Shown here: in pieces, positions 9,751 to 16,031 of the stretch
Layout of the letters: every line of letters begins with the position of its first letter
Position numbering within the stretch: the first letter of the stretch is position 1
Assembly (NCBI GenBank): GCA_030748455.1
Contig: JASMLY010000050.1
Span: 1 to 16,031, forward strand
Source of the DNA: Phycisphaerales bacterium
GTDB lineage: Bacteria > Planctomycetota > Phycisphaerae > Phycisphaerales > SM1A02
DNA length: 16,031 nucleotides
Direction: 5' to 3'
Notes under the pieces: model-generated
Database searches by the model: none
The model's input: the letters and a program-made list of their open reading frames with translations, nothing else
Told to the model about the DNA's origin: nothing
Translations under genes and position numbers: made by a program

Positions 9751-9795
9751 CGGCTCAGAGCCAGATTGGCTCAGAGCCAATCTGGCTCTGAGCCG
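9751..9795. repeat. 45-bp nested palindrome (three GGCTC(A/T)GAGCC units)
   Basis: Perfect 21-bp inverted arms (9751-9771 and 9775-9795) surround a 3-nt centre. Each arm contains a shorter palindrome, so the element is three 11-bp units GGCTC(A/T)GAGCC at 9752-9762, 9768-9778 and 9784-9794. The units are joined by AGATT and its complement AATCT, and their centres are 16 bp apart. It lies in the likely uppS promoter/leader, after the terminator of the upstream giant gene. It could be a multi-site operator, a cruciform/hairpin element, or a small mobile palindrome. There is no T-run on either side, so it is not a standard terminator. Confidence 0.95.
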
Positions 9796-9874: not shown

Positions 9875-12800
9875 TTAGTTTGGCAATTTCTCGAAATACA
9901 CAATCCTTGGCTTATCCGCAGGTGTATTCACATTACTTCGATCTACAAGCATGACATACCTGCTGTCATCAATAATATATCTCAGGTCAGTTGCATCCCA
10001 CAACGCAGTAATCGGGTTACGCTTGAAAGTTCGTATTCTCATATGCACCGTGAACATGTCGCTATTTGTCGAAATCAGGTTGGATATTCCTGCCTGCAAC
10101 ATGTTTATCTCTTCAGCGTCACCACTCACTTCATCACCCCTAACAGAATCTTCGCCATAATAATCAGCCCGATTCACATCAGTACTGATGTGCGTGCCTA
10201 AATCGTTAGCTACATCAAATGGTTCAAGAGCAGCAAAGTCAATTCGCCAAGCATCTGCATATTTCGTCGTTGACCACGGCTCACCCACTGCATCGTCAGG
10301 AGCATAAGATCCTAAAGGATCAACAGGACGCAGTAATCCAATTTCTGCTGGAGAGGAGAATCCGCGTGTTTGTTTTGGGCCAGTACCAAGTTCCATTTCA
10401 AGTGTCAATGCACGGTCAGAATAATCTGTGCCGCCAGGAATTCCCGTGTCATCTGTTACGCTCCAACCTCCATTGGCACCCTCACGCCATTGCACCATAG
10501 CTTCAGGAATTGATGAACGCGGGTTTCCGGTTCCTGCAGACGTACGATGCACAACCTTATACATATGTGGCAACATACGAAGAACTTCAACTGGAGCGGT
10601 ATTGATGTTAATCATGCCTGGTGTCGCTTTGCCGGAGAACCCGTTTGCGTTAAAGAGGGAATGTATAGATGGCCACTCATATTGTGATGATGCTATAGGT
10701 GACAAATCATCATCTTCAGCATCGCCAGTAAAGTCCACCCTACCAGGACCATCACAAACAAACGAATCGAGAATTCTCGTAGCAATTGCCTGGCGAGGCC
10801 ACGGGTGATTCAACGCGTCCGCTTGACCGGGACCAATATATTCACTTCGGCCACCCATCATCAATGGAGTCGGCTCGCTATTCTCACCGCCTGATCCACG
10901 AGGAAGAAACCGAAGTCGGTTCACTCTTTCATCGAGGATCAGTTCATCGTCCTCGTCAATAATGCCAACCAACGGCGCCCACCAATCTTCAATTTGCCAA
11001 TTTGGATACATAAACTCGCTAAAGGTTGTCACAGTGCCGGCATTGACTTGAGTTCCATGATCAAGATGGCTTAGCGGCAATTCTAGGTTGTAATCAAAGT
11101 CCTCATCTGGTGGAAACGGTGGGAAGTAGTCGCCTTCAAGCATATGCCCAAAGAGCCAAACATTGAGTAACTCGCCCACCTGATCAAAGTCATCATCTTT
11201 TTGCAACATCTGAAGCGGGAATGTTAAACCCATATTGAGTTCATCCCTATCAATATCAATCCCGCCTGAACCATTTGTATCTGCATACGCAGGCACGACT
11301 GAAGTTGTACTGCTTGAATTCAATGTTTGTCCATACCACCCCTTGTCAGGGAATGGTGGATTTTCAATTTTATTCATATCAAAAAATGTTGGTTTTCGAT
11401 GTCGGTATCCACCGTGAACTACACCATCATAAATATCCGAATCGTCCGCGCTTGGGTGCCAAAGGTAAGTTGTAAACCATGGGTCTGGAAAATCTGTCAA
11501 TTCATCATCATCAGCAGGAAAAACTGCATTGTCATCCAGTTCACCGCTCCCGTCAAAGTCGTCTGGATCAACAAATTCGGTCCAATGAAACTCTGAACTA
11601 TGTTCAAGATAGATTTGAGACCCTGCATACACATTTTTTGTAATCCTACGCTTCCCATTAAACTCTGGCTCAGCAGGAAAAGTCGTGGGGTCGAGGTCAT
11701 CAACATCATCACCATTTCGAATGAAATCATTCGCGGCAAATACATAGCGCGGGTTTCTTTCAGTAGCGTCATAAGTGTCATTGGGCCAGACACCATCCTC
11801 TGGAACATCAAGTCCCCACGCACGAGTCACTCGATCCCAGTGTACGAGAATAGTTTCAGTGTTTGGCTCAAAGGGAATGAATGTATTCACGTACCCCGTA
11901 TCCCCAACTTTATTCCACTGTCTTTCGAGATCTTCACTTACTCTACTTGCTAATGTTGATCCACTAGATTTCCCTGGTGCATCAATCCGGTCAATAAGAA
12001 CTCGCTGGTCTTCGTCAAATTTATACAAGGCAATAGCGTTGTACTCGGTATCATCCTTATTCCAGTCTAGATCATCGTAATACCCACGAGTTGTCTCCCA
12101 CCCAGGAAGCAAATTCGATGTAAATGAGGGGACTTTAATTATCAAGGTTTTTTCAACACCTTCGTATGGCACGGTGTTTGGATCATCAACGGTATTTACA
12201 TCATCCTGTGGATGGTCATCTTCTTCAATGTCAAGAAAATCTTTCCAGTCCTGATTTAAATCTGGAATAGTTGGATCAAGCGGATCAGCAAAGATTGAGG
12301 CATCAGGCATATCTGCATCTTCAGGGAATGCATACAAAATAAGCGTGGCGGGATTCTCAGGTGTTGCAGGAGGAAGAAGCAAAGATGTCGGGTCTGGAAC
12401 TCCGGGCGTAACAATAGAATCGAACTTAAACTCCTTGCCAAAAAATTCTACAGAATAATCTTGTAAATCGATAAGTCGATTAAACGGATTTGCTAACTGC
12501 ACCACTGCATATGTTCCCTGAAAATCAGACCAAAGTCTATCATCCGGATCAGGATTATCATTCACGATGAAATATTGAATACAAGGCGTATCAATACACT
12601 CCTCTCCACTCTTATAAGTACCACCAAGATTATCGCAATGCGCCTCTTCACTAACATCAATACAACTTCCTGAACCAAAACAACAAGCACCTTCAAACAC
12701 ACACGGCTCATCACCAGTATCTGGAATTTGGTCTGGTCCAAAGCAAGAAACACCATCACCAGCATATGTTCCGCCAAGTTCAATACACTGTTCCTCGGGC

Positions 12801-15800
12801 ACATAAGAACATGGCGAGAAGGCAAGGCAACATGCTCCACCGCAATCTGAATCTGCACAGAATTCACCTGGACGATAGATGCCACCTAAAACAACCTCAC
12901 AGTATTCAGTGAAGTCACGGACACCCACAATATCAACGCAAGTGTCGCTCATTAAACAACACGACCCACTTGGCGCACAAGCAACAGGACCACAAGGTTC
13001 CCCAACACCTTGGAAATATCCAGGGGCATCATTAGTTTCCCACTCACCATTGCCATCGGGATCCTTAAGTTCATCGCAAGAATCCATTGACATCATTTCG
13101 CATCCACCCGCCCAGAGACAACACGCGCCAACGCAGGGATCCGTTGCGCAGAGTTGTCCTGCAGTGTAAATACCTCCAAGAATATCGCACGATGAGCTGT
13201 TCGTTGTGTCAACGCAATTAGCAGTGGTGCCATTGTCTAAACAGCACGAACCGTTTGAGCATGTTTCTAAAAGACAACTACCGCTACTATCCCAAATACC
13301 GTTTGCTTCATCGCACATAGCTTGAATAACCATCACACAGCCAAATGGTTCCATACAACATGCTCCTTCAACGCCTAATGCACATGGATCCGACACACAT
13401 GTTGTTTCATCCCCTTCGTATGAACCTCCAAGAGTGATAATACACATATCTGATGTGAGTTCATCACAGAATTGACTGCTAATACAACACGCTCCAATTG
13501 GCAAACATGGCTCCGTGTCACATGACCGGTCAAAGATAAATGTTCCTCCCATTTCAAGGCAATCCACCGCATAATTATCAAGACAAATACCAAGTGGGAA
13601 GCAACAAGCACCAAGACAAACATTGTCAGCACATGTTTGACCTGGGTTAAAATCACCGCCTATATTTGCACAGTTATCTATTTCTAATTCGAGACATGTG
13701 CCGTTTCCTACGCAACAAGCGGATGTGTCTGAACATGGCGCTGGCAATTCCTCGCAGCGAACCAGCACGCCTTGAAACTCCCCGCCAATATCATTACATG
13801 CACTTTCAAGAAAAACATCTTGGCAGTACCCGGTATCTAAACAACAAGCCCCACGTTGGCTTTCCCCACAAGGAACAGTTCCACAACCCACGCCATCGCC
13901 TGTATATGTACCACCAAGTGCTAAACACGATGTCTCGAGCAAATCTTGAAGACAACCCCCGTCATCTGGTAAACAACATGCACCAGTTGGAACACATGGT
14001 GAATCAACGCAATACTCACCAACTTTATACTCACCTCCAAACAAGTCGCAAGTATCTTGCAACATGACTTCGCACCCACCCGTGTAAAAACAACATGCAC
14101 TTCTACAAGGGCTTATATCGCAAGCATAACCCTGAATATATGTTCCATCAAGACTAATACAAATGCCGAGGGAAACTTCAATGCATGTCCCTTCTCCTAA
14201 ACAACAAGAGCTATTACACGGCGCTTCTACACATTGCACACCTGCAATAAAGTCACCGTTAATCGTATTGCATTCTTGAAGGGAGGCAACTTCAGTGCAA
14301 CTTTCACTCCCTACACAACATGAACCTGCTGCTTGACATGATAACTCGGTGCAATTTTGGTCTTGCCCAAAATATACTCCGCCCAATTCATTACATGCTG
14401 TCGTTGTGACATCGACACACTGGGTGTAGTCCAAGCAACAAGGCGTGGTACAAGGATCAGCATTGCAAAACTGAAGACTTCGATAGGTTCCACCAAGTGA
14501 CGAGCATGCCTCTTGGCTAAGAACATCAACGCAACTGCCACTTTCAACGCAACATGCTCCAAGGGTTTGGCAATCGCCAGCACATTGAGTCTCATACCCT
14601 GCAAATGCTCCGCCAAGTTCAGTACAACTGCGTAAGGAAAGTTCTTCACATGTTCCCATATATAGACAACAACGCCCAATACATTTATTCAACTCACAGA
14701 TTGTGCCATCGCCCCTATATTCACCCTGTAAGGTATTGCAATTACTTGGTCGCATCACAATGCACCCACCATCAGGGAGACAACATGCACCGTACTCACA
14801 ATTTGCAAGTAGACAATTCTCTGAACCTTCAAAAGTACCATTGAGGGCAACACAAGTCAATTCTGAGGTCATTTCACAAAAACCATCTAAACAGCAGGCT
14901 CCTGGGTCATACTCTTCTGTTTCTGCACCATGTGCATGTCCAATGAACGCTTCCATAATAAAGGGTTGCGCTTCAAGCCCGAGCATCACGATGTCGCCAT
15001 CATTTGGGCCAAGGACTGGGACATCTGCATACGGAAGATCATTATCACCTTCCTCTGCTTCTTCCCAACCATTATTGCCAAGGACTGGCGGGGGTACAAC
15101 ACTCGAAAGAGGCGTGTCTACTTTTGGTGTAACACCTGAAATATGGGTGGCAAATGGCGAATGGTCTCGCCATCGATCATCTGCATCAAGATAGGACATA
15201 ATGTTTGATGCAAGTCCAGCAGACATAAGCCGAGCTTGTTGGTAATAATTGTTTACAGGACCATCGGTAGTCCATTGAGCATCCATATCTGGCTCGGTAT
15301 ACGTTCCAAGGGGTCCACGGGCAGGCAAATCAGCAAAATCAAGCGAACTCACACCTTTTTCTTGGGCGTCAGTCATGGCAAGCAAAATTTGAAGTGGCGC
15401 TCGTTGGCTCAGAGTCAATTTTCCATCAGCATTTGACTCCCACCAAATAGCCCATGACGATGTAGGTGGAGTTGGGTCGTAATATTCACGCAAATCTACT
15501 TTGGTTCGGGATTGCTCACGCCAAGTATTCACAACAAAGTTTGCTGTCTTAAACAAATTTATAAGATAATCAGGATCACTTGGATCCAAGAGCGACATTG
15601 CCTCTCCAACTTCCTGTGGAATTGATGGTGGAAAAAGTGAACCCCAAGGCTGAAAGTCATTGTTATAACTTTCGAGTTTAAATGCGTCATACCCACGCGG
15701 CAACGTTCCGGTTGAATCGTTTCGTTGCCAAAACCGCTCTTCCCAACGCAACCATGGCGCCAACAAATCATTCCTCACGCCGCTAAACGCTGTGAGTTTT

Positions 15801-16031
15801 CGGCGATTATCAAAAAGCAATTCCTTATTGTTTAGTTGATCACGTAACTCAGATGCTTCGTGGCGAAGATAACTACTCCGGATGAATTGAGTGTTAGATG
15901 AATCTACACTATTCAGACTACGCTCTAAACGTGACCCAACAAATTGGTAATTGTTCCCTTCAACAACGCGGAGTTCTAATTCATCCGCTGTGGTGTATGG
16001 ACGGAATCCATTTGTGGCAGAAAATGGGTCT
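9875..16031 (-). CDS. Giant GspK-like pseudopilin-family protein with 19 cysteine-rich repeats (partial, 5' end off window)
   Basis: The frame is open from the right edge (first full codon 16030-16028) to a TAA at 9875, giving 2051 visible residues. A TTG at 15820 is not the start, because 70 more in-frame residues precede it. Visible order: a GspK-like segment with NIMSYLDADDRW (LDADD at 281-285); a strand MLGLEAQPFIMEAFIG (about 348-363); 19 Cys-rich repeats (377-1150); YAVVQLANPFNRLIDLQDYS (about 1174-1193), which resembles the rest of a lamin-tail-like domain; a long Asp-rich region with EF-hand-like loops; ININTAPVEVL (1807-1817), the GspK helix-hairpin-helix-like signature; and a C-terminal segment ending in MLVDRSN and PRIVYFEKLP. 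GspK is the large tip pseudopilin of type II secretion, so an envelope or surface location is inferred. Outside the array I see only one cysteine. The N-terminal prepilin part lies off the window. A terminator follows the gene. Assignment to GspK proper is uncertain; a planctomycete-specific relative is equally likely. Confidence 0.8.
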   Translation of the reverse strand, partial: DPFSATNGFRPYTTADELELRVVEGNNYQFVGSRLERSLNSVDSSNTQFIRSSYLRHEASELRDQLNNKELLFDNRRKLTAFSGVRNDLLAPWLRWEERFWQRNDSTGTLPRGYDAFKLESYNNDFQPWGSLFPPSIPQEVGEAMSLLDPSDPDYLINLFKTANFVVNTWREQSRTKVDLREYYDPTPPTSSWAIWWESNADGKLTLSQRAPLQILLAMTDAQEKGVSSLDFADLPARGPLGTYTEPDMDAQWTTDGPVNNYYQQARLMSAGLASNIMSYLDADDRWRDHSPFATHISGVTPKVDTPLSSVVPPPVLGNNGWEEAEEGDNDLPYADVPVLGPNDGDIVMLGLEAQPFIMEAFIGHAHGAETEEYDPGACCLDGFCEMTSELTCVALNGTFEGSENCLLANCEYGACCLPDGGCIVMRPSNCNTLQGEYRGDGTICELNKCIGRCCLYMGTCEELSLRSCTELGGAFAGYETQCAGDCQTLGACCVESGSCVDVLSQEACSSLGGTYRSLQFCNADPCTTPCCLDYTQCVDVTTTACNELGGVYFGQDQNCTELSCQAAGSCCVGSESCTEVASLQECNTINGDFIAGVQCVEAPCNSSCCLGEGTCIEVSLGICISLDGTYIQGYACDISPCRSACCFYTGGCEVMLQDTCDLFGGEYKVGEYCVDSPCVPTGACCLPDDGGCLQDLLETSCLALGGTYTGDGVGCGTVPCGESQRGACCLDTGYCQDVFLESACNDIGGEFQGVLVRCEELPAPCSDTSACCVGNGTCLELEIDNCANIGGDFNPGQTCADNVCLGACCFPLGICLDNYAVDCLEMGGTFIFDRSCDTEPCLPIGACCISSQFCDELTSDMCIITLGGSYEGDETTCVSDPCALGVEGACCMEPFGCVMVIQAMCDEANGIWDSSGSCLLETCSNGSCCLDNGTTANCVDTTNSSSCDILGGIYTAGQLCATDPCVGACCLWAGGCEMMSMDSCDELKDPDGNGEWETNDAPGYFQGVGEPCGPVACAPSGSCCLMSDTCVDIVGVRDFTEYCEVVLGGIYRPGEFCADSDCGGACCLAFSPCSYVPEEQCIELGGTYAGDGVSCFGPDQIPDTGDEPCVFEGACCFGSGSCIDVSEEAHCDNLGGTYKSGEECIDTPCIQYFIVNDNPDPDDRLWSDFQGTYAVVQLANPFNRLIDLQDYSVEFFGKEFKFDSIVTPGVPDPTSLLLPPATPENPATLILYAFPEDADMPDASIFADPLDPTIPDLNQDWKDFLDIEEDDHPQDDVNTVDDPNTVPYEGVEKTLIIKVPSFTSNLLPGWETTRGYYDDLDWNKDDTEYNAIALYKFDEDQRVLIDRIDAPGKSSGSTLASRVSEDLERQWNKVGDTGYVNTFIPFEPNTETILVHWDRVTRAWGLDVPEDGVWPNDTYDATERNPRYVFAANDFIRNGDDVDDLDPTTFPAEPEFNGKRRITKNVYAGSQIYLEHSSEFHWTEFVDPDDFDGSGELDDNAVFPADDDELTDFPDPWFTTYLWHPSADDSDIYDGVVHGGYRHRKPTFFDMNKIENPPFPDKGWYGQTLNSSSTTSVVPAYADTNGSGGIDIDRDELNMGLTFPLQMLQKDDDFDQVGELLNVWLFGHMLEGDYFPPFPPDEDFDYNLELPLSHLDHGTQVNAGTVTTFSEFMYPNWQIEDWWAPLVGIIDEDDELILDERVNRLRFLPRGSGGENSEPTPLMMGGRSEYIGPGQADALNHPWPRQAIATRILDSFVCDGPGRVDFTGDAEDDDLSPIASSQYEWPSIHSLFNANGFSGKATPGMININTAPVEVLRMLPHMYKVVHRTSAGTGNPRSSIPEAMVQWREGANGGWSVTDDTGIPGGTDYSDRALTLEMELGTGPKQTRGFSSPAEIGLLRPVDPLGSYAPDDAVGEPWSTTKYADAWRIDFAALEPFDVANDLGTHISTDVNRADYYGEDSVRGDEVSGDAEEINMLQAGISNLISTNSDMFTVHMRIRTFKRNPITALWDATDLRYIIDDSRYVMLVDRSNVNTPADKPRIVYFEKLPN
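12581..14902 (-). repeat. 19-unit cysteine-rich protein repeat array
   Basis: These 774 codons encode 19 tandem units of about 36-54 residues (mean about 41). The usual unit is G-A-C-C-x(5-9)-C, then a second Cys about 8-10 residues on, a G-G-x-(Y/F) turn, and two more Cys near the end, which makes six Cys and room for three disulfides. Unit starts read CCLDGFC, CCLPDGGC, CCLYMGTC, CCVESGSC and so on to CCFGSGSC. Units are clearly related at the protein level but diverged at the DNA level, which argues for an old expansion rather than recent slippage. Units 15, 16 and 18 carry extra insertions; the one in unit 16 (13028-13063) encodes DPDGNGEWETND. Confidence 0.95.

What the first reader, a model, noticed from the sequence alone, without database searches (positions are those of the whole stretch)
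12581..14902. Giant GspK-like protein carrying 19 tandem six-cysteine repeats
The sequence directly shows 19 consecutive CC-x-C...C...GG(Y/F)...C...C units, about 774 residues, inside a protein whose ends look like a type II secretion tip pseudopilin. Cysteine is almost absent elsewhere in the protein. A large disulfide-rich module on a pseudopilin scaffold is not a known GspK architecture. It could be an adhesin, a binding module or a rigid stalk at a secretion/pilus tip. The repeat type resembles ones I recall from planctomycete secreted proteins, but not in this setting.
Basis: partly seen in the sequence, partly recalled or inferred. Interest (0 to 1): 0.8.

Follow-up and report, generated by a model that had tools for sequence, protein, structure and literature searches.

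The report
Giant pilus-tip protein with disulfide-rich array
This gene encodes a very large protein that probably caps a retractable bacterial surface filament and carries a long chain of small six-cysteine modules, most likely a tough, reaching stalk that helps the cell grip surfaces or polysaccharides.

Summary
The full-length protein (P0001, 2528 aa; the window lacks its first 477) starts like a prepilin without Glu5.

The "type II secretion GspK" label is only partly right. In 17 of 19 relative loci with at least 9.9 kb upstream, the gene ends a conserved operon: pilT-pilB-pilC-prepilin-like genes-K. Only one of these 17 (L005) bears the array. An ordinary-size GspK-like protein lies elsewhere in 10 of 10 genomes tested. 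Best read as the K/X-position minor pilin of a PilT-linked type IV filament, distantly related to Verru_Chthon cassette protein A.

The array was probably gained once, in a short loop. Its units keep one-to-one register between orthologues. In relatives it is interrupted by CBM96/DNRLRE-like domains, and two relatives have a secreted free-standing array gene next door.

Best reading: a modular tip pilin whose array is a disulfide-braced adhesive stalk. Adhesion, tip location and disulfides are inferred. The unit matched no Pfam, NCBIfam or PDB entry but recurs in other secreted Phycisphaerae proteins. New variant of a known kind (modular pilins).

The parts
9875..16030 (-). Giant K/X-position minor pilin ORF (residues 478-2528 of the full-length relative P0001; 5' end beyond the window edge; stop codon at 9875-9877)
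   Evidence: open ORF, 2051 codons; P0001 full length; 2 differences in 2051
14903..16030 (-). Scaffold before the array (window residues 1-376), ending in the conserved MLGLEAQPFIMEAFIGH strand and a short linker
   Evidence: same motif precedes the array or a short loop in relatives
12581..14902 (-). Array of 19 six-cysteine units, 774 residues; unit starts at 14902, 14791, 14677, 14560, 14446, 14326, 14212, 14101, 13984, 13852, 13723, 13612, 13495, 13366, 13252, 13129, 12967, 12838, 12691
   Evidence: register with orthologues; shuffle control
9878..12523 (-). Scaffold after the array (882 residues), conserved with array-less relatives, starting at FQGTYAVVQLANPF
10580..10633 (-). GKATPGMININTAPVEVL motif (NINTA signature, the stretch that aligns with GspK-like proteins)
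   Evidence: position
9752..9794 (.). Short palindromic repeats (GGCTCAGAGCCA) between K and the next gene; in L001 and L004 a secreted free-standing array gene sits in this gap instead
   Evidence: L001/L004
9023..9733 (-). Downstream neighbour on the same strand, uppS-like (name recalled from the sequence); its homologue follows K in L005 and L006, and follows K plus the free-standing array gene in L001 and L004

Best explanation
The ORF is the K/X-position minor pilin, probably the capping tip subunit, of a PilT-linked type IV filament of Phycisphaerae. Shown from sequence: a prepilin-like start, a conserved operon in relatives (pilT, pilB, pilC, prepilin-like genes, K), one ORF across independent assemblies, an array of fixed Cys pattern inserted at one loop of the scaffold, and register conservation. 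Inferred: after prepilin-peptidase cleavage the hydrophobic helix packs into the filament tip with the preceding minor pilins. The array is oxidised in the periplasm to three disulfides per unit. The resulting stiff, protease-resistant string of 19 modules projects beyond the tip when PilB extends the filament, and binds or presents binding domains for extracellular polysaccharide or matrix. PilT then retracts the bound tip. In relatives the string carries a CBM96/DNRLRE-like domain, and two relatives encode a secreted free-standing array protein next door that may be a partner or matrix component, as CofJ is for CofB.
For: Full-length start MNHRLNQTSSTLRAG|NALILVIGILVLLVLVATAF (the cleavage point is my reading). 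One regular expression finds the same kind of start in 99 of 120 relatives, Glu at +5 in 0 of these; the 21 misses are mostly entries whose start is missing or called downstream. L005: PilT 388.8 bits over its 319.1 cut-off; PilB 610.6 and GspF 387.1 bits, strong but under their equivalog cut-offs (675.65, 424); then five prepilin-like ORFs whose matches are weak (best GspG 8e-9, ComGE 1e-7, Verru_Chthon D 5e-10, PilV 1e-7, GFxxxE 0.005), then K. tblastn with the L005 proteins finds pilB, pilC, G, H, I and J before K in 17 of the 19 loci with at least 9.9 kb upstream, G2 in 16 of the 17. pilT stands before pilB in 17 of 17: in 12 inside the locus (75-84% identity; L005 is the query), in 5 in the adjoining stretch of the same contig (79-84%). 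The array lies between the QPFIxEAFIGH and VVQLANPF motifs, where the array-less close relative P0015 has a short loop. Array and C-terminal scaffold are equally conserved against P0002 (78% and 75%). 125 of 152 units match best the same-numbered unit of an orthologue (my count from the lists, 8 orthologues). Array-bearing proteins group together with one array-less row among them: 2 changes, shuffled mean 17.7. Inside the array: CBM96 over the Pfam cut-off in P0022, DNRLRE over the NCBIfam cut-off in P0004 and P0012. A VKOR and a Thioredoxin_4 domain lie side by side in frames of equal length in 4 of 4 genomes tested, 3 of which have an array-bearing K.
Against: No direct evidence for adhesion, tip location or disulfide formation. 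Of the 17 loci with the operon only L005 bears an array; the other array-bearing loci (L001-L004) are cut off before the pilus genes, and the window does not reach them. The AF2 model of three units is moderately confident (pLDDT 85, pTM 0.55), with no PDB match. The C-terminal scaffold model is poor (pLDDT 54.5), so the pilin fold was not confirmed. P0015 does without the array, so it is not needed for the core role. The window's own array has no carbohydrate-binding domain by Pfam or NCBIfam; CBM96 is under its Pfam cut-off in P0004 and P0012 and not found in P0006, where DNRLRE is also under its cut-off. The unit is common in other secreted proteins of these genomes, so it may be a generic spacer. 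The major pilin and the secretin used are not identified. PilT as such is present in 22 of 22 genomes, each with several PilT/PilB-family matches.
Confidence: 0.55

Rival explanations
1. It is a true type II secretion GspK with an added array: the tip of a secretion pseudopilus that captures cysteine-rich exoproteins (the many secreted array proteins) through like-with-like contacts and pushes them through the secretin.
For: NINTA motif and tail resemble GspK (tail by eye); the same module occurs in many secreted proteins of the same genomes; two free-standing array genes lie directly downstream of K.
Against: A GspK-like protein of ordinary size sits elsewhere in 10 of 10 genomes, on the same contig as a secretin in 6 of the 8 genomes searched for both; pilT lies in the K operon; 98 of 120 listed K relatives have no array, 3 of them with one or two units. 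Limit of the contrast: the four ordinary-size proteins scanned match the NCBIfam GspK model well (E 1e-13 to 3e-25) but are also under its cut-off of 130 bits.
Confidence: 0.2
2. The array is a neutral or generic extracellular spacer or length ruler; binding is done by the scaffold or by other minor pilins.
For: CC motifs number 19-20 in one set of relatives and 34-35 in another, as expected of a ruler; the module is widely reused in secreted proteins (31 of 150 class genomes).
Against: Units keep individual identities although the arrays of all but the nearest orthologue are only 43-51% identical, more than a pure spacer needs; CBM96/DNRLRE-like domains occur inside some arrays.
Confidence: 0.2
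3. The array mainly forms covalent or metal-mediated cross-links with the free-standing secreted array proteins, anchoring the cell to its own matrix.
For: Neighbouring secreted 10- and 7-unit proteins in L001 and L004.
Against: The cysteine number per unit is even and constant in the window, which favours closed intra-unit disulfides; no such neighbour in the window, L005 or L006.
Confidence: 0.05

Closest known systems
Modular type IV pilins (Streptococcus sanguinis PilB, CofB of ETEC, ComZ of Thermus; PMC8179133, passages seen)
   Same: Extra module on a prepilin-type minor pilin, likely tip exposed; ComZ and GspK carry the insert inside the pilin part, not at its end; [quoted passage not shown]
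   Different: Here the scaffold alone is about 1750 residues and the insert is a string of six-cysteine units (19 in the window); the most extreme case named in the passages seen was an 860-residue protein with 12 copies of one motif
Type II secretion GspK (PF03934, NF037980)
   Same: Start without Glu5, NINTA motif, last of the prepilin-type genes in its operon
   Different: About 5 times longer than the 436-569-aa GspK-like frames of the same genomes; profile thresholds not met; operon has pilT
Verru_Chthon cassette protein A (TIGR02600) with cassette proteins C and D (TIGR02599, TIGR02596)
   Same: Large protein (profile of 1296 positions); 27 of 28 array-less relatives match weakly, best E 2e-5; neighbouring prepilin-like ORFs of L005 match cassette proteins D (4.7e-10) and C (0.0059), under their cut-offs
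   Different: Not over the curated cut-off of 332 bits as far as shown; no paper in the held library contains the name
PilX/PilY1 tip complex of type IVa pili (PMC13190605, passages seen)
   Same: K follows H-, I/V- and J-like genes as PilX goes with FimU, PilV and PilW, and would supply a large tip moiety as PilY1 does
   Different: No PilY1 match in 20 of 20 genomes, but no control genome rang either, so absence is not shown

Membership tests
Type II secretion GspK | T2SSK/GspK profile match over the curated cut-off | tested here: not met
   Pfam T2SSK 8 of 28 array-less relatives at E up to 5, best 0.03; NF037980 8 of 28, best 0.048; window ORF 0 families. The ordinary-size comparators are under the NF037980 cut-off too, though at E 1e-13 or better
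Type II secretion GspK | Prepilin-type start lacking Glu at +5 | tested here: met
   P0001 sequence; 99 of 120 relatives, Glu in 0 of the 99
Type II secretion GspK | Profile-profile homology over the GspK pilin and alpha domains | tested here: not met
   hhalign A1 against four ordinary-size GspK-like proteins: 22 columns, probability 14%; A7 is shallow (4 rows)
Type II secretion GspK | Encoded with the T2SS set and the only GspK of the genome | tested here: not met
   pilT-pilB-pilC operon; separate GspK-like protein in 10 of 10 genomes
Type II secretion GspK | GspK fold in a structure or model | tested here: inconclusive
   C-terminal model pLDDT 54.5; its fold search was not accepted
Minor pilin of a type IV filament | Linked to pilB/pilT/pilC and to other prepilins | tested here: met
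   in relatives: 17 of 19 loci with at least 9.9 kb upstream, one of them array-bearing (L005); not visible in the window itself
Minor pilin of a type IV filament | Incorporated at the filament tip | not testable with these tools
   needs proteomics or imaging
Modular pilin | Pilin-type N-terminus plus an extra module not specific to pilus biology | tested here: met
   module also found in unrelated secreted proteins
Verru_Chthon cassette protein A | TIGR02600 over its cut-off | tested here: not met
   27 of 28 match, best E 2e-5; P0024 shown at 12.3 bits against 332.3; window ORF no match
Known six-cysteine domain family (Pfam, NCBIfam, PDB fold) | Any match of the unit or array | tested here: not met

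The most novel reading that the evidence does not exclude
A lineage of Phycisphaerae has turned the capping subunit of a retractable type IV filament into a 2500-3400-residue, disulfide-armoured harpoon: a register-fixed string of 19 to more than 30 three-disulfide modules of a fold not yet described, in some members studded with CBM96-like polysaccharide-binding domains, with a secreted free-standing string of the same modules as partner in some genomes.
Probability: 0.4. Interest if true: 0.8.

Novelty: new variant of a known kind. Interest (0 to 1): 0.6.

Why it matters
If true, it adds a new way of building a pilus tip: a long covalently braced string of small modules, inserted into the pilin scaffold at one loop and kept in fixed register, in place of the one or two extra domains of most known modular pilins. 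It gives a concrete gene for how uncultured aquatic Phycisphaerae might grip polysaccharide particles. It also defines a module without a Pfam or NCBIfam family that is widespread (six-cysteine units in 31 of 150 sampled class genomes) and a large minor-pilin family behind it: strong long matches in 5 of those 150 genomes (E under 1e-90), matches at E <= 0.001 in 110 of 150, most of the listed ones short.

Tried and rejected
Separate protein or assembly join: rejected, single ORFs in other records.

Recent tandem amplification: rejected. Units within P0001 are 37% identical on average, while same-numbered units average 48-78% in the four 19-unit orthologues for which this was printed. Tandem Repeats Finder sees no array at DNA level.

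T2SS GspK: rejected as membership, with the limit that the ordinary-size comparators are also under the NCBIfam cut-off.

Fold of the unit: three units modelled, no PDB match; the best Foldseek rows (ADAM17-iRhom complexes) have E of 4.4 or more and were not used. Fold of the scaffold: model too poor to use. Sequence search of the scaffold profile in the PDB gave only weak rows, best E 0.041 to ribosomal protein S16, taken as chance.

Alignment A3 with overlapping windows slid out of register and was not used; A5 used 17 of the 18 locus triples printed plus 4 window triples. Two strict motifs for the insertion loop caught only 19 of 120 relatives, so only named rows of it are cited. The tree used 71 rows: 80 taken, P0022 and P0025 left out by hand, 7 without the motif dropped; it is a quick tree, the place of P0015 has support 92, and starred branches force only one change, so P0015 may lie outside. 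PilY1 absence: no control genome rang, so not claimed. ORFs with many CC in L029 and L038 were checked by the unit pattern: L029 not listed (fewer than 2), 2 in L038, not arrays.

Literature: searches are search listings. No listed title or abstract start describes this module or a planctomycete K protein; most subscription papers are not held, so no claim that it is unpublished is made beyond those searches. Searches (PMC8179133; PMC13190605): passages. (PMC9971899): abstract and start of the introduction.
Full report
What is there. The minus-strand ORF 9875-16030 is open for 2051 codons and leaves the window at its right edge. Shuffled proteins give at most 2 such units in 1000 trials. The complete protein is taken from P0001, 2528 residues, which differs from the window at 2 of 2051 residues.

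The scaffold. P0001 begins with a short leader, then G followed by NALILVIGILVLLVLVATAFITRVQ, the start of a prepilin-like subunit that lacks glutamate at +5; 99 of the 120 listed relatives match the same kind of start and none of these has Glu there. The search found 149 relatives of the C-terminal part and listed 120. Of these 98 have no array (three have one or two units) and are 1137-2876 residues long, the lower limit being set by the search. Profiles place the family weakly: Verru_Chthon cassette protein A matches 27 of 28 array-less members scanned, best E 2e-5, with P0024 at 12.3 bits against a cut-off of 332; GspK models match 8 of 28, best 0.03-0.05. A profile comparison with four ordinary-size GspK-like proteins aligns only 22 columns around the NINTA motif, probability 14%.

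The neighbourhood. The window shows only the downstream side. In L005, a 29.6-kb locus with an array-bearing K, the K gene follows pilT (over its cut-off), pilB/gspE, pilC/gspF (strong, under their cut-offs) and five ORFs with prepilin-type starts, and is followed by a uppS-like gene and, by eye, the same genes in the same order as in the window (gene names uppS, purA recalled). All 19 loci with at least 9.9 kb upstream were examined with the L005 proteins: 17 show pilB-pilC-G-H-I-J before K (G2 in 16 of them), one (L040) part of it, one (L039) only weak prepilin matches. Only L005 of these 17 has the array; L001-L004, also array-bearing, are cut off before the pilus genes. An ordinary-size GspK-like protein (frames of 436-569 aa) lies elsewhere in 10 of 10 genomes, on the same contig as a secretin in 6 of the 8 genomes searched for both. 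Four of these proteins were scanned: all match the NCBIfam GspK model at E 1e-13 or better but under its cut-off. So K most likely belongs to a second type IV filament system with the retraction ATPase, not to the type II secretion system proper.

The array. It sits between two conserved strands of the scaffold where P0015 has a short loop. 22 of 120 listed relatives carry it, with 18-35 CC motifs. On a quick scaffold tree of 71 rows the 20 array-bearing rows form one group with P0015 inside it: one gain and one loss is a simple history, and a single change is not ruled out. Counting, 125 of 152 units of P0001 match best the same-numbered unit in eight orthologues, while units inside P0001 share 37% identity. 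The array is thus old, register-fixed and as conserved as the C-terminal scaffold (78% against 75% to P0002). After unit 6 the array of P0022 is interrupted by a CBM96 domain over the Pfam cut-off, and those of P0004 and P0012 by a DNRLRE domain over the NCBIfam cut-off. In P0004 and P0012 CBM96 matches the same stretch (in P0004 its first part only) but under its cut-off, and P0006 has only a DNRLRE match under the cut-off. P0005, P0007 and P0013 have an insert at the same place that was not scanned. The founding CBM96 domain binds alginate (PMC9971899, abstract). L001 and L004 carry a separate protein of 10 and 7 units, with a signal peptide by eye, between K and uppS; the window, L005 and L006 do not.

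The module elsewhere. The unit occurs in 19 of 20 genomes that were reached through K relatives and in 31 of 150 genomes of the class (at most about 30 candidates scored per genome). Twenty hit regions of three genomes were read: most frames begin like secreted proteins and hold 2-8 CC motifs, several with dockerin-like ends (by eye). Pfam's dockerin match in the L001 protein is under its cut-off. Neither Pfam nor NCBIfam covers the unit, and a three-unit model (pLDDT 85) has no PDB match. A VKOR and a Thioredoxin_4 domain lie next to each other in frames of equal length, probably one fused disulfide-forming protein, in 4 of 4 genomes tested.

Mechanism. From established knowledge of type IV filaments, the GspK/PilX subunit caps the tip with the I/V- and J/W-type subunits. 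By position and sequence this protein should do the same (inferred). The most economical role for a disulfide-braced string attached there is reach and grip: it extends from the tip, resists proteases, binds or displays binding domains, and is hauled in by PilT. Shown: sequence anatomy, operon in relatives, register, carbohydrate-module-like insertions in relatives. Inferred: oxidation state, tip location, adhesion. The main rivals are a secretion-capture role and a neutral spacer or ruler.

Novelty. Modular pilins are known (PMC8179133, passages). The size, the array and its internal insertion make this a new variant of that kind. It should not be filed as GspK.

Noticed in passing
L001:6548-7933 and L004:7181-8203: Secreted (by eye) free-standing six-cysteine array proteins (10 and 7 units) directly between the K gene and the uppS-like gene.
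   Followed up: partly
P0022 about 1104-1291, P0012 about 1140-1325, P0004 about 701-892: CBM96/DNRLRE-like domain inserted after unit 6 of the K array; in these three a second, unnamed insert of about 170-490 residues follows a few units later.
   Followed up: partly
window 9752-9794: Tandem palindromic GGCTCAGAGCCA repeats between K and the uppS-like gene, terminator- or REP-like.
   Followed up: no
G003:C13, G004:C32, G005:C31, G008:C1, G010:C36, G020:C3: Ordinary-size GspK-like protein and a secretin about 5-7 kb apart on the same contig, separate from the pilT-K operon.
   Followed up: partly
G001:C133, G002:C198, G003:C5, G004:C12: VKOR and Thioredoxin_4 domains adjacent in frames of equal length (601-625 aa), a likely disulfide-forming fusion enzyme.
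   Followed up: no
G003:C27:2865-3665: The pilus operon of L005's contig seems to hold a second PilB-like ATPase just upstream of pilT.
   Followed up: no
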